Below are positions 1,092 through 54,642 of a stretch of 64,000 nt of DNA, piece after piece. Origin of the DNA: Saliphagus infecundisoli (GTDB lineage Archaea; Halobacteriota; Halobacteria; Halobacteriales; Natrialbaceae). Within the stretch, counting starts at the first letter, position 1; every line of letters starts with the position of its first letter. The notes under the pieces are model-generated. The model did no database searches. It was not told where the DNA came from and worked only from the letters and a program-made list of their open reading frames with translations. Where the stretch lies: assembly GCF_020177375.1 (NCBI RefSeq), contig NZ_JAIWHV010000016.1, positions 1-64,000 of the forward strand, in the 5' to 3' direction. The translations under genes were made by a program, and so were the position numbers.

Positions 1092-2085
1092 TTCCAGCGA
1101 CATCGGTAAAGATCCGAGCCGTATCGACGACGAACAGCCCGACGACGAGACGGTCGCCGACGCACTGGGCTTCGAGCTCACCGACAGCGATGAACAGCCC
1201 GATTCGACCGCGCACGCGGTGAACGGAGATGTAGCCAGTTCAGCCATGAGCATGGATTCGGAGAGTCTGGACGGTGGCCCCGAGAGCGATGGAATCGACG
1301 AGATCAACGAGATCGACGATCTGACTGATCTCATCGGCGTCGTTCGCTCCCAACAGGAGCTGATCGCCCGCCTCGGAACTCGGGTTGCCTCCCAACAGGA
1401 AACGATCGACGAGCTCACTGACGACATGGAGGAGGTTACTGATGACGTCGAAGCGGTCACCGACGAGGTTGACGACCTCGAGGAGCGCGTCGACGACGTC
1501 GAGGAGACGGCCGATCAGTCCGTCGCCACCAGCAAGGAGATCGCCGCCACCGTCAACGGCGCCCTGGAAGAACGCGACACAGACACCGACGAGACCGAGG
1601 GCGACTCAAAGAGTACCGACACCGCTGGGCCAGGCGAAGCATCGTCGCCAATGGACTTCTTCCTCAACTGCCAGCAGTACCACGTCAACCAGAGTCTCTC
1701 CGCGAATCGTGCTAGAGCCGTCGAGATCGTCCGCAGACGCGCAGAGTTCGCCAAACGCCGGAACGGCGACGGACGGCTCTTCTTCGATTCTGCGGCCCTC
1801 AAGGAAGCGCTGTTGGCGATCATGGGCGAACAGCCCCATCGCGAGACCCGACAGCGGGTCTGGAGATACATTCGCGAGATGGGCGGGCCCGATATCACCG
1901 AGAAACAGTCGATGGTCGATCCGACTAACCAGCAATCGAAGAAGGTCGTCCTCGAGATCGACGATGACGCCGATGACCGCTTCGACGAGGGACGATACGT
2001 CGGGCTAAACCTACTCGCCGATATGAACAGCCGCGACGTGGCTCAGGGCGGCGTCACACCTGTTGTGACCGGGGTGAACGCCTAA
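1033..2085 (+). CDS. Acidic coiled-coil protein of unknown function, 5' end replaced by IS sequence
   Basis: I do not recognise this family. From about residue 20 the protein is strongly acidic, with a heptad-like coiled coil near residues 100-160 (repeated DDxEEVTDDV-type units), an acidic linker, and a compact C-terminal domain from about residue 207 (MDFFLNCQQYHVNQS) with many basic residues. The start codon and first 19 or so codons lie in the right end of the TnpB element, so the original 5' end has been lost and the present start is either chimeric or non-functional. The C-terminal part is duplicated at 10487-11086, where it is frameshifted. The stop is followed by a structured tail shared by three loci. 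Confidence 0.55.
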   Translation: MSRDPQREDSRACRRGEDVNSSDIGKDPSRIDDEQPDDETVADALGFELTDSDEQPDSTAHAVNGDVASSAMSMDSESLDGGPESDGIDEINEIDDLTDLIGVVRSQQELIARLGTRVASQQETIDELTDDMEEVTDDVEAVTDEVDDLEERVDDVEETADQSVATSKEIAATVNGALEERDTDTDETEGDSKSTDTAGPGEASSPMDFFLNCQQYHVNQSLSANRARAVEIVRRRAEFAKRRNGDGRLFFDSAALKEALLAIMGEQPHRETRQRVWRYIREMGGPDITEKQSMVDPTNQQSKKVVLEIDDDADDRFDEGRYVGLNLLADMNSRDVAQGGVTPVVTGVNA

Positions 2086-2366
2086 GGGAGGCTCAGAACG
2101 GATCCCAGAGGAGGAACTCCTCAGGATCCACCCGAACCCACGAATCGATCCATCCCAGACCACACGGGAATGCCCCATGCAGTAGCAACAGCTAGGGAGG
2201 AGCGGCCTTTTGTTCAGAGGGAGCGGAAGAGTGAGTAACACTCTGGAGCGACTGGGACTCGCACCCCCGTCACAACGCCTGTGACGATCGTGACGGTCTG
2301 GAGAGCCTCACCTCTTTGCCTTGTGCAACACTTCCGCGATCACCCATCGTCGCTGTTGCACAAGGC
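1491..2366 (+). repeat. Repeated cassette, copy A (gene 3' part, structured tail, terminal hairpin)
   Basis: About 830 bases here (1491-2329) match 10487-11330 closely at a constant offset near 9 kb; the last 230 bases (2096-2326) also match 13914-14144. The tail contains GTCACA-N5-TGTGAC palindromes at 2053-2069 and 2269-2285, a GAGGAG-GAA-CTCCTC hairpin near 2110 inside a larger GGATCC-flanked inverted repeat, AGAGTG-AGTAA-CACTCT at 2228-2244, and the CCTTGTGCAAC hairpin at the end. Copies A and B stop resembling each other exactly at the left arm of that hairpin. The tail between 2086 and 2317 has no convincing gene. Confidence 0.75.
2318..2366. repeat. Variable-loop hairpin, copy 1
   Basis: Inverted repeat with arms GCCTTGTGCAAC (2318-2329) and GTTGCACAAGGC (2355-2366) and a 25-base loop. 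The arms recur at four other intergenic places with unrelated loops of 24-26 bases. This copy closes the repeated cassette. It could be a recombination site, a bidirectional terminator or an RNA-processing hairpin; the sequence alone does not decide. Confidence 0.8.
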
Positions 2367-10331: not shown

Positions 10332-10486
10332 GAGATCAGGTGATTCGTTCGTGGCATCCTCCTCGTTGGTGATTCGAAGCATATGTCTGCCCTGTGAGAC
10401 TGAGACCAATTCACTGCGCGAGGGCGTTCAACCAATCTACGAAGACGACTCTCAGGGGAAGGTGTAGGAATTGCCAATCGATCCAG
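10332..10486. other. Intergenic region before cassette copy B
   Basis: Non-coding sequence up to the point where similarity to copy A begins. A TTG at 10471 opens the reading frame of the copy B fragment, but nothing looks like a promoter for it. Confidence 0.4.
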
Positions 10487-11086
10487 ACGACATCGAAGAG
10501 ACCGCCGATCAACCCGTCGCGACCAGTAAGGAGATCGCCGCTACCGTCAACGGCGCCATAGAAGAGAGCAGTACGGACACCGACGAGAGCGGATCCAAGT
10601 CCGACTCCAAGAGCGCCGATACCGCTGGGCCAGGGGAGGCCTCCTCGCCGATGGATTTCTTCCTGAACTGCCAGCAGTACCACGTCAACCAGAGCCTCTC
10701 GGCCAATCGCGCGAGAGCCGTCGAGATCGTCCGCAGACGCGCGGAATTCGCCAAGCGACGGAACGGTGACGGACGGCTCTTCTTTGATTCGGAGGCCCTC
10801 AAGGAAGCGCTGCTGGCAATCATGGGCGAACAACCCCATCGGGAAACCCAACAGCGGGTCTGGCGGTACATTCGCGAAATGGGTGGCCCTGATATCACCG
10901 AGAAACAGCCGATGGCCGATCCGACTAACCCCCCAATCGAAGAAGGTCGTCCTCAAAATTGATGACGACGCCGATGATCGCTTCGACGAAGGACGCTACG
11001 TCGGACTGAACCTACTCGCCGATATGAACAGCCGCGACGTCGCCCAGGGCGGCGTCACACCTGTTGTGACCGGGGTGAACGCCTAA
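10487..11086 (+). pseudogene. Second, frameshifted copy of the gene at 1033-2085
   Basis: Matches residues about 155-350 of the copy A protein with mostly synonymous changes. It lacks the N-terminal half and its own start. A run of six C at 10933-10938 replaces the copy A sequence AACCAGC with one extra base and shifts the frame, so the reading passes to GRPQN and stops at 10962; the true C-terminus (KKVVLKIDDDADDRF and on) is in another frame to 11086. That the substitutions before the shift remain mostly silent suggests the copy was under selection until recently. Confidence 0.8.
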
Positions 11087-11318
11087 GGGGGGCTCAGAAC
11101 GGATCCCAGAGGAGGAACTCCTCAGGATCCACCCGAACCCACGAACCGACCCATCCCAGACTGCCTGGGAATGCTCCGTGCAGTAGCAACAGCTAGGGAG
11201 GAGCGGCCTTTTGTTCAGAAGTCGTGGAAGAGTGAGTAACACTCTGAAGCGGCTGGGACTCTTACCCCCGTCACAACGCCTGTGACGATCGTGACGCTCT
11301 GGATCGTCTCACCTCTTT
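11087..11318 (+). repeat. Structured cassette tail, copy B
   Basis: Nearly identical to 2086-2317 at a constant offset of 9001 bases. It keeps the GTCACA-N5-TGTGAC palindromes at 11054-11070 and 11270-11286, the GAGGAG/CTCCTC hairpin, and the AGAGTG/CACTCT hairpin. No gene is evident in it on either strand. Confidence 0.75.
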
Positions 11319-11367
11319 GCCTTGTGCAACATTCCGGCCGTAGTTGGGTCCAGATGTTGCACAAGGT
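11319..11367. repeat. Variable-loop hairpin, copy 2
   Basis: Arms GCCTTGTGCAAC (11319-11330) and GTTGCACAAGG (11356-11366) with a 25-base loop unlike that of copy 1, although the DNA to the left is almost identical in both places. The outer strand beyond the right arm is also different, so similarity between the two cassettes ends exactly at the left arm. Confidence 0.8.
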
Positions 11368-13610: not shown

Positions 13611-14003
13611 ATGGACGCAGTCTCGACCCACAGTCGACGACGGTTTCTCGGATGTGCTGGCGGGGCACTCCTCGGCGCGGGGGTTGCGAGCACGTCAGCG
13701 AGTGCCGAAACAACCACCGAGATTACCATCATCCACGATTCGTATTTCAACGGGCTGTACAACAGCGCCGAAGACCCGGACAACATTGCAACCTACTTCG
13801 GGTTGGTCAATGCGCTCCGTGAGAGAGCGCTGAATCCGCTCGTTCTTGGGAAGGGCAATGACCTCTCACCCTCAGTGATGACGACGCTATTCGATGGGGC
13901 ACACGTGATCGACGAACGGATCCCAGAGGAGAAAGTCCTCAAGATCCACCCGAACCCACGAATCGATCCACCCCAGACCGCCTGGGAATGCTTCATGCAG
14001 TAG
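13611..14003 (+). pseudogene. Truncated exported 5'-nucleotidase/metallophosphatase
   Basis: Starts with a twin-arginine signal (HSRRRFLGCAGGALLGAG) and continues into the first strand of a UshA-like metallophosphatase (TTEITIIHDSYFNGLY; the family normally has His-Asp/Asn metal ligands here). After about 101 residues (near 13913) the frame enters the cassette tail, reading ERIPEEKVLKIHPNPR, so roughly four fifths of the enzyme is missing. The missing catalytic residues make activity impossible. It marks the insertion point of cassette copy C. Confidence 0.75.
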
Positions 14004-14144
14004 CAACAGCTAGGGAGGAGCGGCCTTTTGTTCAGAAATCGTGGAAGAGTAAGTAACACTCTGGAGCGACTGTCGCTTGCACTCTCGTCACAACGCCTGT
14101 GACGATCGTGACGCTCTGGATCGTCTCACCTCTTGGCCTTGTGC
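13914..14144 (+). repeat. Structured cassette tail, copy C (partial)
   Basis: 231 bases matching 2096-2326 and 11097-11327. One GTCACA-N5-TGTGAC palindrome is kept at 14087-14103; the GAGGAG/CTCCTC hairpin is changed. The left arm of the terminal hairpin breaks off after CCTTGTGC (14137-14144), and there is no right arm. The gene part of the cassette is missing. The 160 bases after it, up to 14307, hold no recognisable gene. Confidence 0.75.
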
Positions 14145-14307
14145 CAATTCTTGGCGTTTTCAGCCACTAATGAGACACGTACCACGGGCCGGTTATCCAC
14201 ACTGAAGGGTTAATCTGTTCGAGAGCGTGGCGGTCTCATTTTCAAGAAAGAGTTCGCCTCGTTTCAGGTAGCCTCCCACCTTTGTCAGCAAAGTCTCGGA
14301 TTGACGC

Positions 14308-32965: not shown

Positions 32966-33015
32966 ACCTTGTGCAACATCTTTATGGAGAGAGACGGCCA
33001 ACTGTTGCACAAGGT
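32966..33015. repeat. Variable-loop hairpin, copy 3
   Basis: Arms ACCTTGTGCAAC (32966-32977) and GTTGCACAAGGT (33004-33015) with a 26-base loop. Ends two bases before the ATG of the DUF6788-like gene at 33018. If transcribed, the hairpin would occupy the 5' end of the mRNA; if not, transcription must start inside it. Confidence 0.8.
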
Positions 33016-33017
33016 CA

Positions 33018-33374
33018 ATGGCTTCACTCACCCCGCCGGAGTCACTCCCGAAGTACATCGCGGACGGGCTTCCGAAACAAGACGATGAGACGCTTCGCGA
33101 CACACAGGAGTACATCGACCAACTCATAGCCGATCGCGAACGGCACCGAGAAGAGCCCGTCACCGAGGACGAACTCCCCAATGACGTCGACGTCGTTGAG
33201 GAAGATTCGGATGGAACCGTCTATCACGAGTATCGGACTTGTGGCGATGATACCTGTCAATGTATGAGTGGCGGCTCAAAACATGGCCCCTACGCCTACC
33301 GAGCGTATCGCGACGGTGACACGGTTCGCAGGGAATATCTCGGCAAAGCTCCGGACACCAACACAACTGCCTAA
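33018..33374 (+). CDS. DUF6788-like protein
   Basis: 118 residues. The N-terminal half is helical with a Glu/Arg-rich coiled segment; the C-terminal half has the conserved Cys pattern YRTCGDDTCQCMSGGSKHGP and the strand YAYRAYRDGDTVRREYLG. It fits the family I recall as DUF6788, found next to mobile elements in bacteria and archaea, role unknown. The three cysteines with a His could bind a metal. The MBL-fold gene starts three bases after the stop, so they are co-translated. Confidence 0.7.
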   Translation: MASLTPPESLPKYIADGLPKQDDETLRDTQEYIDQLIADRERHREEPVTEDELPNDVDVVEEDSDGTVYHEYRTCGDDTCQCMSGGSKHGPYAYRAYRDGDTVRREYLGKAPDTNTTA

Positions 33375-45035: not shown

Positions 45036-46469
45036 ATGAAACTCGAGTTCGACGACGGCACACTCCTCCTTCGCGGAGCCCCCGAAACGGTTCCGTATGC
45101 AGAGTGGGATGACCGCGTCGATGAGTATCGTGCTCAAGCATATCGGTATCGAGCGCTACTCGAATGGGCTGGAACGTGGGATGACTCCCACGGACAAGAA
45201 GCCGCTGCTGATGAGCAACGAACGCTTCAGCAGGGGTTCGAGCAATCCATCGAGGACGCTGCCCGTGGCTATCCCGATCTTGACCTCACACCCGCCCTCC
45301 ACATCGAACCGCGTGACTACCAGCAGGCCGCTCTCGATGCGTGGATCGACCACGGACGTCAGGGGAGCGTCGTCCTTCCGACGGGGAGCGGGAAAACCTT
45401 CCTCGGTCTCCAGGCGATCGCTGACGCCGGTGTCAGCGCACTCATTGTGACGCCAACGATCGATCTAATGAACCAGTGGCATGCCACGCTCACGAACGCC
45501 TTCGGCGACCAACTCTTAGAGCCGATCGGCGTTCTCGGTGGCGGTTCTCACGACGTCACTGCGATCACGGTCACCACCTACGACAGCGCCTACCGCTACA
45601 TCAACGAATACGGCGACCAATTCGGCTTACTCGTCGTCGACGAGGAACACCACCTCCCCGCACCGACCTACCAGCAGATCCCCGAAATGACGATCGCGCC
45701 GTATCGCCTCGGACTGACCGCCACCTACGAGCGCCCCGACGGCAAACACGAACTCTTAGAGGATCTCATTGGGCCGATCGTCTACCAGGAGGACGTCGAC
45801 GAACTCGCCGGCGAGTATCTCAGCGAGTATGAGACGATCCACATGTCGGTTGAGTTGACGGCCGACGAACGCGAGCAGTACGACGAAGAGTACCAGCTCT
45901 ATCGCGACTACGTCGACAGCCACGAGTTCGACCTCTGGAAAGAGGAAGGGTACGCTGAGTTCCTCAAGCGGACCTCTTACGATCCACAGGGCCGGCGGGC
46001 ACTCGTCGCGAAGCAACGGGCCGAGCGGCTCGCCCGTACAGCCGAAAAGAAACTCGACACGCTCGATACCCTGATCAAGCGCCATCACGATGACCGCGCG
46101 ATCATCTTCACTGCCAACAACGACTTCGCTTACGACATCTCCCAGGAGTTCATCGTTCCCTGCATCACCCATCAGACGGATACCGAGGAACGCACGGAGA
46201 TTCTCGAGCGATTCCGCACTGGAGAGTACTCGATGCTGGTGACCTCACAAGTTCTCGATGAGGGAATCGACGTCCCCGCTGCGAACGTCGGGATCATCCT
46301 CTCGGGGAGTGCCTCGAAACGCCAATACGCCCAGCGGCTCGGCCGCATTCTCCGACCGACGGACGATCGCCAGCCGGCGCGCCTCTATGAGATCATCGCC
46401 GAGGAGACGATGGAGACGTACGTCTCTCAACGCCGCCGTGAGGGGGTGACGACCAGTGCTGACAGCTGA
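45036..46469 (+). CDS. XPB/Rad25-type DNA helicase
   Basis: 477 residues from MKLEFDDGTLLL. SF2 helicase that opens DNA in repair. Domains: DRD-like N-terminal region, helicase 1 with Walker A PTGSGKT (115-121) and DEEHH (202-206), thumb-like insertion (ELTADEREQYDEEYQLYRDY), and helicase 2 ending QYAQRLGRILRP. The longer frame upstream looks unrelated. It overlaps bax1 by 14 bases, so helicase and nuclease are co-translated; XPB-Bax1 in other archaea act together on DNA bubbles. Confidence 0.92.
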   Translation: MKLEFDDGTLLLRGAPETVPYAEWDDRVDEYRAQAYRYRALLEWAGTWDDSHGQEAAADEQRTLQQGFEQSIEDAARGYPDLDLTPALHIEPRDYQQAALDAWIDHGRQGSVVLPTGSGKTFLGLQAIADAGVSALIVTPTIDLMNQWHATLTNAFGDQLLEPIGVLGGGSHDVTAITVTTYDSAYRYINEYGDQFGLLVVDEEHHLPAPTYQQIPEMTIAPYRLGLTATYERPDGKHELLEDLIGPIVYQEDVDELAGEYLSEYETIHMSVELTADEREQYDEEYQLYRDYVDSHEFDLWKEEGYAEFLKRTSYDPQGRRALVAKQRAERLARTAEKKLDTLDTLIKRHHDDRAIIFTANNDFAYDISQEFIVPCITHQTDTEERTEILERFRTGEYSMLVTSQVLDEGIDVPAANVGIILSGSASKRQYAQRLGRILRPTDDRQPARLYEIIAEETMETYVSQRRREGVTTSADS

Positions 46470-47829
46470 TCTCGCTCGCTCGCGCACGACCGATGAGGAG
46501 GTGACACCACTATTCATCGGCCCCGAGGACGATCGCTACCGGCAGACCGCCGGGGAGCTCATCCAGTTGTTCGAGGCGCATCTCGACGAACCGAAAGGCG
46601 ATCTCGAGGACGCGATCGACGAACTGACCGTCGCGGATACCGATTACAAGATCGTTCAGGGCCTAGCGAAGCTCCTGAAAGACGAGTGTGAGTTTGAGGT
46701 CGTCGCCCCTGCCAATCCGCGAGAGATTCGTCGGCACCTATTCGAGAGAGCCAACGAACAGTATCCGATCGTTCGCCAGCCCACGCTCGGCGAGGACACC
46801 CAAAAGCTGGAAATGTACAGTGGGATCGCCGACGAGTTGGGTATCTCGCTCGAAGAGTGCTATCGGGGAATGTATGCCGATCTCGAGGACAACAAACGAC
46901 TCGTCCGTATCGGGACGCGGACGGCTGAGCAGTACGCGAGCGGTGAGGATACAGAGGCATCGATGTCGACGACTGCGCTGACGGGCAGTAGCGACGAGGA
47001 GTACGAACGGACGGATTTCACGGTTGACTGGTTGCTGACTCGGTATAATCTCGCGCTCGCCCAGGCAGTGCTCTACGATGCGACGGAGATGCGTATTCGC
47101 GTGTGGGACCACTTCGGGACGGTGTTCAGTTACGTGAAGCTGTTCGGACTGATGCACCGGATCTATCCGATCGACGCTGAGGGCGAGCGCGTCGCGAGTA
47201 CCGATCAGGCTGTTGGGTACGAAGCCGTGCTCGATGGCCCAGCATCGTTGTTTTCGCAATCCCAGAAGTACGGGATCCGAATGGCGAACTTCCTCCCGGC
47301 ACTCCCGCTCTGTGATCGGTGGGAAATGACCGCCGAGATCCTCATCGACGAGGCACTCGGCGAGACTCGAGAACTCACGCTGGACGATACTGACGGGCTG
47401 GATTCGCATTACAGCGCGGGAGAGCACTTCGATAGCGACGTCGAACGAACGCTCGCCCAGAAGTGGGAGCGGGCGACGACTGACTGGGAGTTAATGCGCG
47501 AGGATGATGTGTTCGACCTCGGTGCAGAGGTGATGATCCCCGACTTCGCGATCGAGCATCCGGACGGTCGCCGGGTGATTCTCGAGGTCGTCGGCTTCTG
47601 GACCCCAGAGTACCTGGAGTCGAAACTGGAGAAGATTCGGCAAGTGGAGGCTGACAACTTCGTGCTCGCTGTCTCTGAGCAACTGGATTGCGCGAGCGGA
47701 GACTTCGGAAGTGCTGCTGATCGCGTGCTGTGGTTCAAGACTGGTATTCACGTTTATGACGTGGTTGAGCTGGCTGAGACGTATGCACGAGAGTCTGGGC
47801 CATCAGCTCCTACGGAGATGGATATCTAA
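46456..47829 (+). CDS. Bax1 nuclease (DUF790), XPB partner
   Basis: 457 residues, start GTG inside the helicase gene. The N-terminal part is helical (ARSRTTDEEVTPLFIGPEDD); the nuclease core begins near residue 361 with IPDFAIEHPDG and RVILEVVGFWTPEYLESKLE, in which Asp363 and Glu377 match the metal-binding residues of the PD-(D/E)xK fold of Bax1. It cuts the strand opened by XPB. Normal length. Mobile-region setting suggests an accessory copy in addition to a chromosomal pair, but that is inference. Confidence 0.92.
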   Translation: MLTADLARSRTTDEEVTPLFIGPEDDRYRQTAGELIQLFEAHLDEPKGDLEDAIDELTVADTDYKIVQGLAKLLKDECEFEVVAPANPREIRRHLFERANEQYPIVRQPTLGEDTQKLEMYSGIADELGISLEECYRGMYADLEDNKRLVRIGTRTAEQYASGEDTEASMSTTALTGSSDEEYERTDFTVDWLLTRYNLALAQAVLYDATEMRIRVWDHFGTVFSYVKLFGLMHRIYPIDAEGERVASTDQAVGYEAVLDGPASLFSQSQKYGIRMANFLPALPLCDRWEMTAEILIDEALGETRELTLDDTDGLDSHYSAGEHFDSDVERTLAQKWERATTDWELMREDDVFDLGAEVMIPDFAIEHPDGRRVILEVVGFWTPEYLESKLEKIRQVEADNFVLAVSEQLDCASGDFGSAADRVLWFKTGIHVYDVVELAETYARESGPSAPTEMDI

Positions 47830-47884
47830 GGGGACAGCTGTAGTATATGGCCCCTCTCGCCATCGAGAGACATCGTTATCCGGA

Positions 47885-47930
47885 CCTTGTGCAACAAACT
47901 GGCGAACCAATCAAAGAATGTTGCACAAGG
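47885..47930. repeat. Variable-loop hairpin, copy 4
   Basis: Arms CCTTGTGCAAC (47885-47895) and GTTGCACAAGG (47920-47930) with a 24-base loop. It lies 56 bases after the bax1 stop and 88 bases before the next gene. The loop has no similarity to those of the other copies. Confidence 0.8.
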
Positions 47931-48018
47931 CGAAGATAGGCAGTGATTGCTCACTGCAGGTGCGTATCGATCGCTCCTTCTGCCGAACTGTTAACAGCTA
48001 TGCAGTTCAGTTGAGAGT

Positions 48019-48501
48019 ATGGCGCCGGTCAGTACCGGGCAAATTGGACGGTGGGTTGTCGGTGATAAGCGCCCGCGTCGTGCCCTTGTTGGCGCGGTAC
48101 TCGGGTTACTGGGACTTGCATCAGGGGCATTCTTTCTCGGACTGGATGTCGGGCTGTTCGACGTCGGTGGGGGCTGGATTGTGGTTGTACTCGGGATCGC
48201 ATTCCTTGGTGGAATATTCAGGGCAGGCCTTGGGTCAACCGTTGGTTCCCTCTGGCTCATTGCCATTTGGTGGTTTGTCTTTCCGCCGCTTGTCGGCTAT
48301 TTCACAGGTGAATGGACGACGATGGCGTCTCGTTACATGCATCCGAGAGTGCTAGGGTTCGGGTACACCTCCGCACGCACTGAATTGCTTGGCGGACTTG
48401 AATACGGCGTGCGATTTGGGCTGCTCTTTGCCGTCATCTCGGGAACCATCGCCTACATCCTCGGTACCGTCATCAACGGAGTCAAAACACGACTGGTATG
48501 A
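48019..48501 (+). CDS. Hypothetical membrane protein
   Basis: 160 residues with about four membrane helices (ALVGAVLGLLGLASGAFFL; WIVVVLGIAFLGGIFRAGLG; SLWLIAIWWFVFPPLVGYF; FGLLFAVISGTIAYILGTVI). No transport motif. Similar small Gly-rich membrane proteins occur near conserved genes in haloarchaea without known role. Cannot name it further. Confidence 0.7.
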   Translation: MAPVSTGQIGRWVVGDKRPRRALVGAVLGLLGLASGAFFLGLDVGLFDVGGGWIVVVLGIAFLGGIFRAGLGSTVGSLWLIAIWWFVFPPLVGYFTGEWTTMASRYMHPRVLGFGYTSARTELLGGLEYGVRFGLLFAVISGTIAYILGTVINGVKTRLV

Positions 48502-48581
48502 ACTCTGAAGACCTGTATCGAGCACGAGATTCGGTCAGGAACCGGTTGAATTGAAACGCATCAGTTGCTCCTTCGAGGTGC

Positions 48582-48704
48582 GTGCTGACCGCATCCCTAC
48601 AACATATTGAAACGAAGCGAGACGCTGAGCAGCGGCTCGAAGAAAAGCACGAGAGTATGAAAGGCAGTGTAAAGATGCTACAGGCCACACTCGACGACGA
48701 ATGA
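48582..48704 (+). CDS. Short antitoxin-like protein for the Doc toxin
   Basis: 40 residues from GTG 48582: MLTASLQHIETKRDAEQRLE, then EKHESMKGSVKMLQATLDDE. A charged amphipathic helix that ends in the ATGA overlap with the Doc-type gene, the position of the antitoxin. No DNA-binding part is visible; the ORF may be the C-terminal remnant of a longer Phd/AbrB-like antitoxin, since the open frame runs back only to 48555. Confidence 0.5.
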   Translation: MLTASLQHIETKRDAEQRLEEKHESMKGSVKMLQATLDDE

Positions 48705-49108
48705 CAGAGTCCCCGGAATTCCCCGATCCCGAGGACGTCCTCGCTGCGCATGATGAGATCGAAGACGATTACGACCTCACACACACCGGCGCTCGCGTGG
48801 TCGCTCCACGCCTCAAGATTGAGCGGCTTCTCGATGAAATCGACGAGCATGATGGGCTGTATCTTCGCGCGGGTTACCTACTCAAGAAGCTCATTACGTC
48901 CCATTACTTCGAGGACGGCAACAAGCGAACATCGTGGATGGTCGTTCGGGACTACCTTGCAGAGAACGGCAAGGAGCCCGCCGACCTGAGGGAGACTGTT
49001 CGAGTATTGAAACGAATCCGAGCATTCGATCCCGAGGAAATCGCCGAGTGGCTCGAGACGGGGGAGATTGACCGAGATAGGCTATACCCCCGGGGTGGCG
49101 AAGATTGA
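48701..49108 (+). CDS. Doc/Fic-family toxin
   Basis: 135 residues. Motif HYFEDGNKRTSW, with His68, Asp72 and the Gly-Asn-Lys-Arg turn, identifies the Fic/Doc fold; Doc-type proteins phosphorylate elongation factor Tu (or an archaeal homologue) and stop translation, while some Fic proteins attach AMP. The N-terminal part includes the acidic helix DPEDVLAAHDEIEDDYDLTH. Overlaps its short partner by four bases, as in phd-doc pairs. A 32-residue gene follows. Confidence 0.82.
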   Translation: MTESPEFPDPEDVLAAHDEIEDDYDLTHTGARVVAPRLKIERLLDEIDEHDGLYLRAGYLLKKLITSHYFEDGNKRTSWMVVRDYLAENGKEPADLRETVRVLKRIRAFDPEEIAEWLETGEIDRDRLYPRGGED

Positions 49109-49142
49109 ATACGCGTCGAGCACAAACGGAGAGCAAGTAACC

Positions 49143-49241
49143 ATGAGCCAGGACCTCCAAGACGACGATCGCGAGGAGTACCGGAAGCGTATCCGCAAGC
49201 TGATGGAGGAAGACCGGGAGATTCTCGACGCGCTCGACTAA
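49143..49241 (+). CDS. 32-residue acidic protein
   Basis: MSQDLQDDDREEYRKRIRKL followed by MEEDREILDALD: one highly charged helix. It lies 34 bases after doc on the same strand. I remember similar miniproteins encoded alone or near haloarchaeal toxins. It might be the real antidote if the short upstream protein is only a relic; that is a guess. Confidence 0.5.
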   Translation: MSQDLQDDDREEYRKRIRKLMEEDREILDALD

Positions 49242-49384
49242 CGCTCACTGGACCCCGTCACCGTCTGCCATGTGGACTAAGCAGATAATTCCGACAGTGA
49301 CTAGACTGATTCTTGTGCTCAGTATGGATGCGAACGTCTCCACTCCGTCAGCACCCCGACGCTAAAGGTTACGCACTTCGACGG
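49242..49384. other. Intergenic, nothing recognised
   Basis: Spacer between convergent genes without gene or notable repeat. Confidence 0.35.
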
Positions 49385-49573
49385 TTACTCGGCAAGCAGA
49401 TCATACAACATCAACAGTCCAACAGCAAGGGTAACGATACCACTAATGAGAGCGTACATTCCGGTATCGTACACCAGAGTATATGCACTTATGCTGAGGA
49501 CAACCACCGTTCCGATGGCCTGTGCAGTTCGTGTCCCCCAAAAATCAATCACTTGTTGCACGAGTGAAGACAT
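49385..49573 (-). CDS. Small membrane protein
   Basis: 62 residues from MSSLVQQVIDFWG. Two membrane helices (AQAIGTVVVLSISAYTLVY; MYALISGIVTLAVGLLMLY). It ends with a short acidic LLAE. Unrecognised. Separate from neighbours; its promoter would be in the region before the second Orc1/Cdc6 gene. Confidence 0.5.
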   Translation of the reverse strand: MSSLVQQVIDFWGTRTAQAIGTVVVLSISAYTLVYDTGMYALISGIVTLAVGLLMLYDLLAE

Positions 49574-49895
49574 ACACGAGCATTCTTGTCGTTGATCCAT
49601 AATCCTTCTTGTGCTGATCGATACGCGTAGAGCCTGTAGCAAGCACGAGATTCACCTCTAACAGCGATGAAATCAAAATCTCTGTCAACTCTACCTTGAC
49701 GACGACGTCTCTGCGTACGAGAGGGTAACACGAATCGACAACCCACAAACGACGAATCTTCCGTCACCGCCCCCAGAGTGGGATCAATCGCGACTCGGCG
49801 AGTTCTCGTCATATGTTCGAGGTCGCGTGGACTTTCGGAAGTTTCGGAAATCACCCGCCACCGTTTATCACCCCTCCCGCTGAACGGGTCGTGAT
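49574..49895. other. Region before the second Orc1/Cdc6 gene with TTTCGGAA motifs
   Basis: About 320 bases without a gene. Two TTTCGGAA motifs at 49833-49840 and 49842-49849 form a direct repeat 9 bases apart. A TTTATC at 49863-49868 about 30 bases before the GTG start serves as a likely TATA. More copies follow after the gene (50890, 50903, 50973). The layout fits an iteron-type origin for the adjacent initiator. Confidence 0.55.
49833..49849 (+). repeat. TTTCGGAA motif pair upstream of the second orc gene
   Basis: Two copies of TTTCGGAA, 9 bases apart, directly before the probable promoter. They match motifs found after the gene. Confidence 0.6.
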
Positions 49896-50924
49896 GTGAT
49901 CACCGACGCTCGGGTCTTCCAGGACGAATTCGTTCCCGAGACCGTCGTGAACCGGAATGCCGAACTCAACCGCCTCTCGGGGATCATCGAGCCAGTCCTC
50001 CACGATGATTCCTCCGAAACTGCCTGCCTGTTCGGACCGACGGGTGTCGGGAAAACCTGTTGTGCCCAGTACGCCCTTGAGGACCTTCGAGAAACAACGT
50101 TCGATGTCGAAACGGCCTACATCAACTGCTGGCACAACTACAACAGCTATCGCGTGCTCTATCGGCTTCTCGACGAACTCAACCAGACGCTAGACATTCA
50201 CCGCCAGTCCACCCCTCGGGATGAACTCTACGAGCGCCTTCGGAACGCGGATACCCACCCCTATGTCGTGATCCTCGACGAGGTCGATCAACTTGAGGAT
50301 CAGGACGTCCTCTACGACCTGTATGCATTGCCCCATCTTTCGATGATTCTCATCGCGAACGACGAACAGGAGCTCTTCTCGGGTCTCGATGATCGCCTCT
50401 ACAGTCGGCTCCGTGGGAGCGAGTGTGTCGAGTTCGAGCGGTACGGCATGGACGAACTCGTGAGCATCCTCGAACAACGCGTCCAGCGTGGGCTCAACGA
50501 CGAGACACTCGACCGAACCCATCTCGAACAGGTGGCTGACGCGGCCGCCGGCGATGCACGGGTCGCGATTGGCATCCTGCGGACGGCCGTCCGCCAGGCA
50601 TCCCGCGACGGTGCGACCCAACTTTCAAGCGAAGATATTGACGAGGCAATCCCCAAAGCACGGACGGAGCTCCACCGGAAAACGATCGATCAGCTCATCG
50701 AAGATCAGCAACTCCTCTATGAAATCATCGCTGATCACGGTGAGATCACGCCAGGGGCCCTCTATGAGGCCTATGAGGCTCAACGTGAGGCACCGAAGTC
50801 TCGTCGGATGCTTCGCAACTACCTCTCGAAGATGGAACACTACAACATCATCGAGGCTGACGGCCAGAAACGCAGTCGCGTCTATCGGGTTTCGGAAACC
50901 GATTTCGGAAACGCTGGTTCCTAA
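49896..50924 (+). CDS. Orc1/Cdc6 replication initiator (short form)
   Basis: 342 residues from GTG 49896. AAA+ core with Walker A GPTGVGKT (47-54), Walker B VVILDEVDQ (124-132) and sensor 1 at LILIANDEQ. The winged helix at the C-terminus (LYEIIADHGEITPGALYEAY; SRRMLRNYLSKMEHYNIIEA) is complete. It is shorter than the Orc1/Cdc6 at 41884 and only distantly related. It is followed by a RecA-like gene and polymerase gene on the same strand, a combination seen in haloarchaeal plasmids. Confidence 0.93.
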   Translation: MITDARVFQDEFVPETVVNRNAELNRLSGIIEPVLHDDSSETACLFGPTGVGKTCCAQYALEDLRETTFDVETAYINCWHNYNSYRVLYRLLDELNQTLDIHRQSTPRDELYERLRNADTHPYVVILDEVDQLEDQDVLYDLYALPHLSMILIANDEQELFSGLDDRLYSRLRGSECVEFERYGMDELVSILEQRVQRGLNDETLDRTHLEQVADAAAGDARVAIGILRTAVRQASRDGATQLSSEDIDEAIPKARTELHRKTIDQLIEDQQLLYEIIADHGEITPGALYEAYEAQREAPKSRRMLRNYLSKMEHYNIIEADGQKRSRVYRVSETDFGNAGS

Positions 50925-50980
50925 CCCCAGAAACGCCAGACTGAACGGCGATCTGTGAACCTCCAGAGAGCGTTTCGGAA
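50890..50980 (+). repeat. TTTCGGAA motif cluster after the second orc gene
   Basis: TTTCGGAA occurs at 50890-50897 and 50903-50910, inside the last codons of the gene, and at 50973-50980 in the spacer, followed by GCCGGAAACG. Same motif as at 49833. Together they could be iterons of the origin or operators for both transcription units. Confidence 0.6.
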
Positions 50981-51036
50981 CCGCCGGAAACGCCACGCCG
51001 GCGCTTATCGGAACTCCTCGTGATTGCTGGAGTGAG

Positions 51037-51747
51037 ATGTCCGATCACATACGGTCGAATCGATCGAACCCAATCCCCGAACTCCCCTCGCTTGGATCGG
51101 GACTGCAACTCCTCGAGGTCGATGGCGAGCCGAGAGGCCCGCTGCATACCCTCGTCGTCGATCAGGTCCTCACGAGCCAGGGCTCGGCCTACTGGGTCGA
51201 TACCGGAGGGCATGCGACGACCCAGCCACTCGCGCGGATCGCGCCCGATCCCCGGGTCCTCGACCGGATACAGGTGGCACGTGGATTCACCCCGTTCCAA
51301 CACTACACGCTCATCGATGAGCTCCGCCGCGAAATCGACGAAGAGACTACACTGCTCGTCGTTCCCGCAGTAGATAGGTTCTACCGGGAGAACGATCTCC
51401 GTCTCGACGAAGGCGAAGCACTGCTCGTTCGGGTGCTCGCGATGCTCGCTCGGTGTGGCCGTGAACACGATATCCCAATTCTCGTGACTCGGAGTCGCGA
51501 TGACGAGTTCGCGGCGCCGGTCGAGGCGAGTGCTGCGACGACGATCGAATGCCAGTCAACGACGCAGGGGCCCCGATTCGTCGCCGACGAGTTCGAGACG
51601 CTCGTCTATCCAGCCTCACACGGCCAGCTCCAGACGACGCTCGCGTTCTGGCATCGGATCCTCGACGCTCGCGAGCTGCTCTACGAGCAGGCCTCTGGAC
51701 CTGTCGCCCCATCCAGTCCGGAGGTGGTCGTCGATGGGGCGAACTAA
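51037..51747 (+). CDS. RecA/RadA-like protein lacking the P-loop
   Basis: 236 residues. The fold pattern is RecA-like: GSGLQLLEVDGEPRGPLHTL in place of the Walker A strand and loop, IQVARGFTPFQHYTLIDELR, then a Walker-B-like strand TLLVVPAVDRFY and a helix with LLVRVLAMLARCGREHDIPI. The phosphate-binding Gly-Lys-Ser/Thr is missing, so it should not hydrolyse ATP. It may act as a mediator or clamp loader-like partner of the polymerase. The next gene starts before its stop (14-base overlap). Confidence 0.65.
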   Translation: MSDHIRSNRSNPIPELPSLGSGLQLLEVDGEPRGPLHTLVVDQVLTSQGSAYWVDTGGHATTQPLARIAPDPRVLDRIQVARGFTPFQHYTLIDELRREIDEETTLLVVPAVDRFYRENDLRLDEGEALLVRVLAMLARCGREHDIPILVTRSRDDEFAAPVEASAATTIECQSTTQGPRFVADEFETLVYPASHGQLQTTLAFWHRILDARELLYEQASGPVAPSSPEVVVDGAN

Positions 51748-52021
51748 CGCGACGTATCGAGACACGCTACGGGCGCTCGAAAATCAGTGGACCGACTATC
51801 GGCGGGGACTCCGCCGTGATGAACAAAACCAGTTCGATCGCCTCTTCGAGTACGCACGAAGCCATGCGGATGCGAGCGGCTACTTGAACCACCCAGAGCC
51901 GATGTACGCACTCCTCGTTTCGATCGCCCTCGAACAGGAAGCACAACTCGAGGAATTCGACAGCCGACTTGAGACACTCGAGGAAACAGTCGATCCCGAG
52001 AGCGACGGGATTGAGAGGTAA
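51734..52021 (+). CDS. Small helical protein between RecA-like and polymerase genes
   Basis: 95 residues from MGRTNATYRDTL. Two or three long helices (RALENQWTDYRRGLRRDEQN; YALLVSIALEQEAQLEEFDS) and an acidic tail. It overlaps the preceding gene by 14 bases and is followed by the polymerase gene after 7 bases, so translation is coupled. Possibly an accessory subunit of the polymerase; unrecognised. Confidence 0.65.
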   Translation: MGRTNATYRDTLRALENQWTDYRRGLRRDEQNQFDRLFEYARSHADASGYLNHPEPMYALLVSIALEQEAQLEEFDSRLETLEETVDPESDGIER

Positions 52022-52028
52022 CCGCTCC

Positions 52029-54128
52029 ATGCCGTTCAAAATCGACTATATCGATGGGACCGTCTACTCGTGGACAACCGACGCAGACGGTGCCTCGTAC
52101 ACGATCCACGACGACTACACACCTTCTCTATACGCGAGCGCCGACGCAGACTCGGAGGCGACACTCGCGACTCTTCGCGGGAATCTCGAGCATCATCCCG
52201 CTGTTATAGAAATGGCTCTCGAGCAGTGGCGACCGGGCTTTCGCCACGATCACGAAGACGTCCTTCGGATCGACGTCGATCGGATCGACGCTGTCCGGAC
52301 CGTCGCCTCGTTCATTCGCGATCGGGGACAGCCTGGTGCCTACCGCTGTTTCAACGTCGACTTCTCGCGAGAGTTTCGCTACTGTCTCGAGACCGGTGTC
52401 GATCCGACGCCGGCCTCAGAGCTCTCGACGCTCAAGGTCGACGTCGAACCCCCACAGCTAGCGGAGCCGCCGATTACCGAACTCACGATCGATGGAGAAT
52501 CGTTCTCAGGTTCACCGGAGGCGATCCTCCAGACCGTTCAAAACCGCCTCGAAACCGTTGATCCTGATGTCTTGGTGCTGTCCTCGGCGGATCTGATCCC
52601 GACACTCAGCGCGAGTGCTGGTGAGTCCAACGTTGATTTTCAGTGGGGACGGGTACCTGGCTGGCAGCGCCTCGCTGGTCGATCGACCTACGAGAGCTAC
52701 GGAAATACGGGCCACTCGCCCGCACGGTACAACGTTCCCGGCAGGGCGATCATCGATCGGTCGAATACGTTTTTCTACGACCAATCGGGCCTCGACGGCT
52801 GTCTCGACCTCGTCTCGCGGTCGCGAAAGCCCCTCCAGGAACTCTCGTGGGCGTCGATCGGTAACGTGCTCACGGCGATTCAGATCCGTGAAGCTCGCGA
52901 GAGGGATGTGCTGGTCCCCTGGAAATCGTGGCGCCACGAGTTCTTCAAATCGATGCGAACGTTGCATGACGCCGATCGCGGCGGCTATACGTTCTCACCG
53001 GAAGTCGGCTTCCACGAAGACGTGCACGAACTCGACTTCTCAAGCTTGTATCCCAACATCATCTGTACCTATAATATCAGCCCGGAGACGATCCGATGTG
53101 AGTGCCACCGTGATCGGAAGGACGTCCCCGGGCTCGAGTATGCGATCTGTGACGAGCCAGGCTATCTCCCTGATGTTCTCCAACCGTTGATCGACGATCG
53201 TGACGAGATCAAAGCCGAGATCGCGGAGACCGATGATGAAGCTCGCGAAGCCCAACTCCGGAGTCGCTCGAGTGCGATCAAGTGGATCTTGGTCTCGTGT
53301 TTCGGTTATCAGGGCTTCAGTAACGCCAAATTCGGGCGCATCGAGTGCCACGAGGCGATCAACGCCTACGCTCGCGAGATCCTGCTCGATACGAAGGCGG
53401 TCTTCGAGCAACACGGGTGGCGACTCCTCCACGGCATCGTCGATAGTATCTGGGTCACACCGATTGAAGGTGAGTCACAGACGCCACTGGAAGATCTGGC
53501 TCGTGACATTTCCGAGGAGGTCGGTATCCGCTTGGAGTACGAATCCGAGTTCGACTGGGTGGCGTTCGTCCCGCTTGCGGATAGCGACGAAGGTGCCCTC
53601 ACGAAGTATTTCGGGAAACGGAGCGACGGGGAGTACAAGTATCGGGGGATTGCGTGCCGACAGCGAAGTACGCCCGAGTGGATTGCCTCGATGCAACAGG
53701 AATTCATTCGGACGCTCGACGCCCAGCGAACACCCGAAGCGGTCTGTTCACACCTTCAGCAAGCGCTAGGCGAACTTCGCTCCGGGGCGGTCGATCCAAC
53801 GGACTTGCTCATCACGAACCGAGCCTCGAAGCGATTAGGTGACTATCAGCAATCAACGCGGACGGTCGCTGCGCTGGAACGGGCGACGGAGGCAGGATTC
53901 AATCCCCAACCAGGCCAGGACGTCTCGTATGTGGTCGTCGACGACGAAAAGAACTCTCGAGAGCGGGTCCAACTGGAATACGAGGACCTCGATCGCTATG
54001 ATCAGGACTTCTACGCGGAGATGCTGATCGATGCCACGGAGACGGTCTGTGCCTCGCTTGGCTGGCGCCGTGATCGAATTGACCGATACCTCGCTGATCA
54101 CATCAATGGCTCTCTCCAAAACTACTGA
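52029..54128 (+). CDS. Divergent family B DNA polymerase (PolB2-like)
   Basis: 699 residues from MPFKIDYIDGTV. Motif A is HELDFSSLYPNI (Asp336), motif B is KWILVSCFGYQG (Lys418, with Cys-Phe-Gly in place of the usual Asn-Ser-x-Tyr-Gly), and motif C is HGIVDSIWVT with Asp472 kept but the first Asp of DTDS replaced. The exonuclease region is degenerate: VDVE and SSADLIPTL stand where Asp-x-Glu and Asn-x-x-x-Phe-Asp should be, so proofreading is unlikely. Such PolB2-like enzymes accompany orc genes on plasmids. It may be a translesion enzyme or an inactive scaffold. Confidence 0.85.
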   Translation: MPFKIDYIDGTVYSWTTDADGASYTIHDDYTPSLYASADADSEATLATLRGNLEHHPAVIEMALEQWRPGFRHDHEDVLRIDVDRIDAVRTVASFIRDRGQPGAYRCFNVDFSREFRYCLETGVDPTPASELSTLKVDVEPPQLAEPPITELTIDGESFSGSPEAILQTVQNRLETVDPDVLVLSSADLIPTLSASAGESNVDFQWGRVPGWQRLAGRSTYESYGNTGHSPARYNVPGRAIIDRSNTFFYDQSGLDGCLDLVSRSRKPLQELSWASIGNVLTAIQIREARERDVLVPWKSWRHEFFKSMRTLHDADRGGYTFSPEVGFHEDVHELDFSSLYPNIICTYNISPETIRCECHRDRKDVPGLEYAICDEPGYLPDVLQPLIDDRDEIKAEIAETDDEAREAQLRSRSSAIKWILVSCFGYQGFSNAKFGRIECHEAINAYAREILLDTKAVFEQHGWRLLHGIVDSIWVTPIEGESQTPLEDLARDISEEVGIRLEYESEFDWVAFVPLADSDEGALTKYFGKRSDGEYKYRGIACRQRSTPEWIASMQQEFIRTLDAQRTPEAVCSHLQQALGELRSGAVDPTDLLITNRASKRLGDYQQSTRTVAALERATEAGFNPQPGQDVSYVVVDDEKNSRERVQLEYEDLDRYDQDFYAEMLIDATETVCASLGWRRDRIDRYLADHINGSLQNY

Positions 54129-54133
54129 TACGA

Positions 54134-54157
54134 GTTCTCTTTAGGATTGGATAGCTT
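54134..54157 (+). repeat. Direct repeat, left copy, flanking the PadR unit
   Basis: GTTCTCTTTAGGATTGGATA followed by GCTT. Matches 54676-54699 with three differences. The two copies enclose 518 bases with a PadR gene and hairpin copy 5. Confidence 0.65.
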
Positions 54158-54268
54158 CCAAAGAGAGCTAACGAACGCCACAGAGGGCGTGGTCCCTATT
54201 CGGTCGGTTCACAGAATTCATAGGTATACTTCCGAACAGTTAACTTGAATTGGGTCTTAGAGATCGGC

Positions 54269-54550
54269 ATGTACGACTTGACCGGCTTCCAGCGGGACCT
54301 CCTGTACGTTGCGGCTGGATTGGACGAACCCCATGGTCTGGCGATCAAGGACGAACTCGAGAACTACTACGAAGTCGAAATCCACCACGGACGCCTGTAT
54401 CCGAACCTCGATACGATCGTCGACAAGGGACTTCTCGAGAAAGGCGAGAAAGACCGCCGAACGAACGTCTATTCGGTCACTCGTCGCGGACGGCGTGAAA
54501 TCGAAGATCGACGCAACTGGGAATCCCAGTACGTCGAGGACCTCCTCTAA
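54269..54550 (+). CDS. PadR family winged-helix regulator
   Basis: 93 residues from ATG 54269. DLTGFQRDLLYVAAGLDEPH, IKDELENYYEVEIHHGRLYP and NLDTIVDKGLLEKGEKDRRT give the PadR fold. Close paralogue of the protein at 41548-41823. A TTG at 54245 would add eight residues, but the paralogue starts at the same Met, so ATG is preferred. Followed by hairpin copy 5; both are flanked by a 24-base direct repeat. Confidence 0.88.
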   Translation: MYDLTGFQRDLLYVAAGLDEPHGLAIKDELENYYEVEIHHGRLYPNLDTIVDKGLLEKGEKDRRTNVYSVTRRGRREIEDRRNWESQYVEDLL

Positions 54551-54592: not shown

Positions 54593-54642
54593 GGCCTTGT
54601 GCAACAGAAATCCCCAATTTCAAAGGAGCGTTGCACAAGGCC
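54593..54642. repeat. Variable-loop hairpin, copy 5
   Basis: Longest arms of all copies: GGCCTTGTGCAAC (54593-54605) and GTTGCACAAGGCC (54630-54642), 13 pairs, around a 24-base loop. It stands 42 bases behind the PadR stop. Confidence 0.8.

What the first reader, a model, noticed from the sequence alone, without database searches (positions are those of the whole stretch)
2318..2366. Five intergenic hairpins with invariant arms and fully variable, length-constrained loops
The inverted repeat CCTTGTGCAAC ... GTTGCACAAGG occurs at 2318-2366, 11319-11367, 32966-33015, 47885-47930 and 54593-54642 and nowhere else that I could see in intact form. Arms are identical over 11 bases (A always follows the left arm), while the loops (25, 25, 26, 24 and 24 bases) share no sequence. 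A MITE would keep its inside; a normal terminator would not keep its arms; so both the arms and the spacing seem selected. Four copies lie shortly after a stop codon and one two bases before a start. Orientation CAAC...GTTG resembles the R''/R' boxes of integron attC sites (RYYYAAC...GTTRRRY) with one mismatch each, but there are no extrahelical bases and no integrase in view. Other options: RNA-processing or terminator hairpins, or ends of an unknown element.
Basis: partly seen in the sequence, partly recalled or inferred. Interest (0 to 1): 0.8.

Follow-up and report, generated by a model that had tools for sequence, protein, structure and literature searches.

The report
Protein-linked hairpin sites on haloarchaeal plasmids
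The five hairpins belong to a widespread, apparently undescribed family of paired DNA sites on plasmids and viruses of salt-loving archaea, each class tied to a small uncharacterised protein (DUF6788) whose own promoter lies inside one of the hairpins, which points to a private protein-and-site system, possibly one that helps plasmids to be inherited.

Summary
The five hairpins are real: arms exact, loops 24-26 nt, 28 exact copies in the genome, 0 for the control pattern. The family occurs in all seven near-complete Halalkalicoccaceae sampled (4-50 copies, mostly on plasmids) and in almost no other haloarchaeon with these arms. It is intergenic without orientation bias, so not a terminator. 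Arms are constrained (99.5% identical where flanks are 78%); homologies between copies stop at hairpins far more often than elsewhere. The key finding: the hairpin at 32967 abuts the start codon of a DUF6788 gene, and DUF6788 genes across haloarchaea and haloviruses (phiH1, phiCh1) carry a hairpin of the same size at the same place, with arms of several classes (GTGC, ATGT, ACCA, ATCA, AACC). Arm class follows the DUF6788 clade and, in the three main classes, one C-terminal residue without exception. The DUF6788 promoter lies in the loop; in three viral genomes a same-class hairpin also precedes parA. Best reading: recognition sites of DUF6788 proteins, autoregulatory at their own gene, dispersed elsewhere, plausibly centromere-like. 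Binding and partition are inferred, not shown. attC, REPIN/RAYT and IS-derived MITE membership fail. No paper on DUF6788 or these hairpins was found in the open library.

The parts
2319..2365 (.). Hairpin 1: arms 2319-2329 and 2355-2365, loop 25 nt
   Evidence: exact arms
11320..11366 (.). Hairpin 2: arms 11320-11330 and 11356-11366, loop 25 nt
   Evidence: exact arms
32967..33014 (.). Hairpin 3: arms 32967-32977 and 33004-33014, loop 26 nt with TATA-like CTTTAT; 3 bases before the DUF6788 start codon
   Evidence: TATA-like motif enriched in DUF6788-linked loops (21/36 against 16/242, P=1.5e-12)
33018..33374 (+). DUF6788 gene (118 aa, PF20586 E=8e-10): proposed hairpin-arm-binding protein
47885..47930 (.). 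Hairpin 4: arms 47885-47895 and 47920-47930, loop 24 nt; 55 bp after the DUF790 gene
54595..54640 (.). Hairpin 5: arms 54595-54605 and 54630-54640, loop 24 nt; 44 bp after a PadR-like gene
14137..14207 (+). Relic of a sixth hairpin: degenerate left arm CCTTGTGCCAA followed by a fragment of the IS630-type MITE that elsewhere sits in hairpin loops
1492..2318 (+). Left flank of hairpin 1, 88% identical to about 10486-11319 (left flank of hairpin 2) up to the arm; loops and right flanks unrelated; part recurs at about 13914-14144 before the relic

Best explanation
The hairpins are paired recognition sites (two 11-bp sites in inverted orientation about 24 bp apart) of a small DNA-binding protein, DUF6788, carried by haloarchaeal plasmids and plasmid-prophages. 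At the DUF6788 gene itself, and at parA in viruses, the site brackets the promoter and would give autoregulation. Further copies lie dispersed in intergenic DNA of the same replicons and would be bound by the same protein; their most likely job is centromere-like (ParA plus DUF6788 plus sites). Arms are held by selection for binding, loops drift within a length limit, and site specificity co-evolves with the protein. Copies spread by duplication and rearrangement of plasmid segments whose junctions fall at hairpins. Shown: architecture, distribution, arm constraint, gene linkage, class concordance, breakpoints. Inferred: binding, autoregulation, partition.
For: Hairpin abuts the DUF6788 start in 9/9 plasmid DUF6788 genes picked by protein similarity, seven from other genera, and in 37/41 distinct genes overall (many of these loci were fetched through their hairpins); in a profile-based sample 18/29 have a stem of at least 9/11 against 3% at random positions. 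Stem positions 5-8 covary between lineages. Arm class against residue: GTGC-R 12, ATGT/GTGT-S 16, xCCW-W 9, no exception; arm classes follow the protein tree (6 changes, shuffled 21) and not the host family. Unlinked copies share the class of the replicon's DUF6788: own genome, all 28; phiCh1, four ATCA hairpins in the 28 kb read, at DUF6788, before parA, between repH and imm, and after gp85; phiH1 and L338 the same at DUF6788 and before parA. Mapped start site T8 of phiH1 lies in the right arm. Arms 99.5%, loop 71.5%, flanks 78% identical in 52 pairs. H. jeotgali has a second, divergent DUF6788 with its own arm class. Plasmid location.
Against: No binding data; the DUF6788 model (pLDDT 80.6) has no significant PDB match. 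At linked sites, arm-protein concordance could be mere co-inheritance, and class and residue share one phylogeny. Natronococcus A-GB7 has one GTGC hairpin and only a weak, AACC-type DUF6788 relative. No parA-like gene on the H. jeotgali plasmids starts within 1.3 kb of a hairpin. Partition does not predict breakpoints at hairpins, nor a dozen or more sites per plasmid.
Confidence: 0.5

Rival explanations
1. A REPIN-like miniature mobile family: the 46-bp unit itself is copied by a trans-acting enzyme that reads the two arms; DUF6788 is that factor or its helper, in the role that RAYT plays for bacterial REPINs.
For: Inverted doublets with conserved ends and variable spacer, intergenic, almost no singlets, loop archetype shared between unrelated flanks, class co-varies with a linked gene; compare REPINs (PMC3116915).
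Against: Y1 transposase PF01797 absent from G063, G066, G068 and G069, which carry hairpins; no target duplication; no empty site in the sequence in hand; DUF6788 shows no recognisable nuclease fold; at high loop similarity, copies that share a flank outnumber free-standing ones.
Confidence: 0.2
2. Site-specific recombination sites (integron-like or dif-module-like): a recombinase exchanges neighbouring gene segments at the arms.
For: Homology stops at hairpins (398 alignment ends there; stop fraction 0.73 against 0.15-0.35); H. paucihalophilus L074 joins the left flank and loop of one L127 hairpin to the right flank of the next, 954 bp on; loop inverted in L073; DUF6788 bracketed by two hairpins in L342.
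Against: No integrase shared by the carriers; sites mostly about 20 kb apart rather than in arrays; 24-bp spacing unlike tyrosine recombinase cores (established knowledge); microhomology-mediated repair at hairpin breaks could give the same junctions.
Confidence: 0.17
3. Plasmid-wide operators: DUF6788 is a regulator and the dispersed hairpins are its regulon.
For: Promoter inside the hairpin at DUF6788 and hairpin before parA in viruses.
Against: Dispersed copies show no preference for promoters: 21 tandem, 10 convergent, 8 divergent, as for random intergenic sites; TATA-like motifs rare in other loops (16/242).
Confidence: 0.1
4. Neutral MITE or IS remnants with conserved ends.
For: Palindromic, repeated, on plasmids; an IS630 element and MITEs seem at first sight to share the arms.
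Against: The IS630 element and MITEs have their own ends and sit inside the loop; the paralogous site lacks them. Arms constrained, loops not. No IS with these ends among the half-sites.
Confidence: 0.03

Closest known systems
ParABS-type plasmid partition (ParA, small centromere-binding protein, parS/parC)
   Same: Low-copy replicons; palindromic sites in the promoter of the binding protein and near parA; site specificity tied to the protein; several sites per replicon
   Different: DUF6788 matches no known centromere-binding fold; two 11-bp sites 24 bp apart; a dozen or more sites per megaplasmid; partition not demonstrated
REPIN/RAYT of bacteria (PMC3116915)
   Same: Inverted conserved ends with variable spacer, intergenic, hairpin-forming, lineage-specific, linked gene that co-varies
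   Different: No Y1 transposase in several carriers; ends 11 bp; whole unit 46 bp; linked gene is DUF6788 and its promoter lies in the hairpin
Integron attC sites, including archaeal integrons (PMC9668308)
   Same: CAAC...GTTG arms, variable loop, junctions of gene segments
   Different: One mismatch in each box, perfect arms, no integron integrase found; the archaeal integron paper's main text does not mention halophiles
Small mobile repeats and PATEs of Haloquadratum (PMC3119063)
   Same: Short haloarchaeal inverted-repeat elements unrelated to transposons, without target duplication
   Different: 80-110 bp, high identity inside, inserted in IS605-type palindromes; the MITEs found here inside hairpin loops resemble SMR-A in size and habit, the hairpins do not

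Membership tests
Integron attC | R''/R' boxes RYYYAAC ... GTTRRRY | tested here: not met
   GTGCAAC and GTTGCAC have one mismatch each; other classes (ATGTAAC, ACCAAAC) fail too (sequence)
Integron attC | linked integron integrase | tested here: not met
   tyrosine recombinases found by PF00589 form no group close between the own genome and Halalkalicoccus; an IntI-specific model was not run
Integron attC | cassette arrays or exchange at the site | tested here: inconclusive
   breakpoints enriched at hairpins; a few close pairs (L127, L143, L342); mostly dispersed
REPIN/RAYT | conserved inverted doublets with variable spacer, intergenic | tested here: met
REPIN/RAYT | RAYT (Y1_Tnp, PF01797) in carriers | tested here: not met
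   absent from G063, G066, G068, G069
MITE of a known IS | ends shared with an autonomous element | tested here: not met
   no element with these ends among all half-sites of the own genome; the IS630 insert has its own ends
MITE of a known IS | target-site duplication | tested here: not met
   no excess of flanking direct repeats of 2-10 bases
Transcription terminator | position downstream of genes, depleted between divergent genes | tested here: not met
   21 tandem, 10 convergent, 8 divergent, as in the null
ParA-type partition system | parA linked to the site and to a small protein gene | tested here: met
   phiCh1, phiH1, L338; not seen close to hairpins on H. jeotgali plasmids
ParA-type partition system | small protein binds the site | not testable with these tools
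   inferred from class concordance
ParA-type partition system | needed for stable inheritance | not testable with these tools
   needs an experiment

The most novel reading that the evidence does not exclude
DUF6788 with its hairpins is a new family of archaeal DNA segregation or replicon-organising systems: a tiny protein with private, lineage-specific paired sites, at least five site classes, shared by megaplasmids and plasmid-prophages, with sites that double as plasmid rearrangement junctions.
Probability: 0.33. Interest if true: 0.85.

Novelty: new variant of a known kind. Interest (0 to 1): 0.72.

Why it matters
Haloarchaeal megaplasmids carry many genes, yet centromere-binding proteins and centromeres for them are largely unknown (my own knowledge). 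If DUF6788 binds these hairpins, a gene family of unknown function found on dozens of haloarchaeal plasmids and in the classic haloviruses phiH and phiCh1 gains a target, haloarchaeal genetics gains a set of distinct site classes, and a role becomes testable. It would also bear on why plasmid segments in Halalkalicoccus are joined at these points.

Tried and rejected
IS630 ends: the 1164-bp element with arms at both ends (C17:36369-37532) turned out to be an IS630 copy inserted in a hairpin loop; the paralogous site C29:30819 has the uninserted hairpin. IS110 origin of one flank family: PF02371 absent from G049, G061 and G062. RAYT. Target duplications: none. Empty sites: none found in the sequence in hand. 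Terminator or operator by gene orientation: no bias. Tyrosine recombinase as common factor: no shared group. Bacterial hits of the pattern (Frateuria, Arthrobacter, others) look unrelated and were set aside by eye. Halalkalicoccus-type arms in viral contigs: none. Synteny of parA and a hairpin between the own genome and H. jeotgali: equal distance (about 1.76 kb), but homology covers only about 1.5 kb around parA and does not reach the hairpin, so taken as inconclusive. Literature by arm sequence and by DUF6788: nothing relevant.

Full report
Observation. The window holds five hairpins CCTTGTGCAAC-N24..26-GTTGCACAAGG at 2319-2365, 11320-11366, 32967-33014, 47885-47930 and 54595-54640, with no exact unpaired arm. 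The genome holds 28 exact copies; the reversed control pattern has none.

Distribution. With arms of 9-10 bp the family is found in all seven near-complete Halalkalicoccaceae sampled (4-50 copies) and in the own genome (29), but in no other of 392 sampled genomes of the class; a named scan added about 50 copies in Halalkalicoccus paucihalophilus and one in Natronococcus sp. A-GB7. In H. jeotgali B3 (G049), 30 of 31 copies lie outside the 2.8-Mb chromosome, mostly on NC_014298 and NC_014299.

Anatomy. On the H. jeotgali plasmids 39 of 40 copies are intergenic where 28% would be expected, in tandem, convergent and divergent gaps in the same proportions as random intergenic sites (my own ORF calls), so terminators and operators are not the rule. 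Exact arms are nearly always paired, with 0 pairs in shuffles. The loop never exceeds 26 nt in 97 exact copies although longer ones were allowed. In 52 pairs of copies with both flanks homologous, arms are 99.5% identical, loops 71.5%, flanks 78%: the arms are under strong constraint. No target duplication and no empty site were found.

Junctions. About half of all flanks (133 of 256) fall into 31 repeated families that abut hairpins. Homology between copies stops at hairpins: 74 alignments stop and 29 pass (mean stop fraction 0.73) against 0.15 for random and 0.35 for nearby intergenic intervals. Hairpins 1 and 2 of the window share 0.83 kb of left flank up to the arm while loops and right flanks are unrelated. 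In H. paucihalophilus one locus (L074) joins the left flank and loop of one hairpin of another locus (L127) to the right flank of its next hairpin, 954 bp away, and one copy (L073) has its loop inverted relative to both flanks. These data fit recombination at the arms by an unknown route; the alignments are not independent of each other.

Insertions. An IS630-family element and 110-bp MITEs with IS630-like ends sit inside hairpin loops; four of the five full-length MITE copies found in the stretches held lie between hairpin arms, and a sixth, broken hairpin in the window (14137) is followed by a MITE fragment. The stretches held from the own genome were chosen around hairpins and arm sequences, so the proportion is not unbiased.

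The linked gene. Hairpin 3 lies three bases before the start of a DUF6788 gene (33018-33374; PF20586). All nine plasmid DUF6788 genes taken by protein similarity have an inverted repeat of the same size at the same place; the seven from genera outside Halalkalicoccus have other arms: CCTTATGTAAC (Halovenus, Halobacterium, Halocatena, with variants there and in Haloquadratum), CCTTGTGTAAC with a near partner (Halococcus), TCTTACCAAAC (Haloterrigena). Over all loci, 37 of 41 distinct DUF6788 genes show it, and in a profile-based sample 18 of 29 have at least 9 of 11 pairs against 3% at random positions, including a Zn-less branch of the family with its own class TTAACCAACA...TGTTGGTTAA. A class-wide degenerate pattern finds such hairpins in 81 of 392 genomes, some of them probably chance hits.

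Co-variation. Stem positions 5-8 change in a paired manner between lineages. Arm class agrees without exception with one residue near the protein's C-terminus: GTGC with R, ATGT or GTGT with S, ACCA/ACCT/GCCA with W, and follows the DUF6788 tree rather than the host family. The own genome's proteins and arms group with Halalkalicoccus although it belongs to another family, which suggests transfer of protein and sites together (inference). Linkage alone explains agreement at the linked site; the stronger point is that unlinked copies have the class of the replicon's DUF6788.

Viruses. DUF6788 is PhiH1_250 and PhiCh1_230 in haloviruses phiH1 and phiCh1, whose prophages live as plasmids. phiCh1 has ATCA-class hairpins at DUF6788, about 70 bp before parA, between repH and imm, and after gp85 (28 of 58 kb read). 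phiH1 has them before the DUF6788 operon and before parA; the mapped start of transcript T8 lies inside the right arm. A metagenomic viral contig (L338) repeats the pattern in the ACCA class. TATA-like motifs are found in 21 of 36 DUF6788-linked loops against 16 of 242 other loop readings (P = 1.5e-12).

Mechanism. The simplest reading is that DUF6788 is a small DNA-binding protein that reads the two arms, controls its own promoter and, in viruses, parA, and binds further sites dispersed over the replicon. ParA plus a small autoregulated protein plus dispersed palindromic sites is the pattern of a partition system, which I take as the most likely role, at moderate confidence. Binding, autoregulation and partition are inferred. 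The AlphaFold model (mean pLDDT 80.6) shows a long helix and a beta-sheet with the Zn-ribbon-like part; Foldseek gives no significant match; arm-binding domains of integrases rank among the first hits, but at E about 2, which is not evidence.

Known kinds. attC, REPIN/RAYT and MITE definitions were tested and each fails a defining feature. No paper in the open library names DUF6788 or these arm sequences in this context; subscription literature was not searched. Verdict: a real, widespread and apparently undescribed site family tied to a protein of unknown function.

Noticed in passing
L006 (own genome C17:36369-37532), L007, L008, L037; H. jeotgali NC_014299 257653-257807; window 14137-14207: IS630-family element and about 110-bp MITEs with TTGAG(C/G)TTTTCA ends sit inside hairpin loops; four of five full-length MITE copies in the stretches held are between hairpin arms, as if they target palindromes, like SMR-A of Haloquadratum.
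   Followed up: partly
viral contigs L276-L336: 44 matches in viral contigs, many of 4-8 kb, hold CTTATGTAAC-N37-GTTACATAAG (57 bp), and others of lower GC content hold TTTCTTATGTAAC-N18 or N25-28-GTTACATAAGAAA: other conserved inverted repeats, not examined.
   Followed up: no
H. jeotgali NC_014298 396830-398072: A divergent DUF6788-like gene with its own arm class (TTTAACCAAC) and two such hairpins 1.2 kb apart: a second site class on the same plasmid.
   Followed up: partly
L073 (H. paucihalophilus contig 12, about 143570): Loop inverted relative to both homologous flanks: an inversion between the two arms.
   Followed up: partly
L342 3231-3650: A DUF6788 gene tightly bracketed by two hairpins, like a gene cassette.
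   Followed up: no
H. jeotgali NC_014299 257653 and 257797: A MITE-split hairpin whose two arms carry the same compensating change (CCTTGTTCAAC on both strands).
   Followed up: no
L071, L106, L129, L134 (Arthrobacter, Paeniglutamicibacter); L070, L082, L093, L098, L102 (Frateuria): Bacterial inverted repeats matching the same pattern in similar contexts, apparently unrelated.
   Followed up: no
window 46456-54550: Repair and replication genes (DUF790 protein, type B DNA polymerase, PadR) near hairpins 4 and 5, duplicated on another contig of the genome (C5).
   Followed up: no
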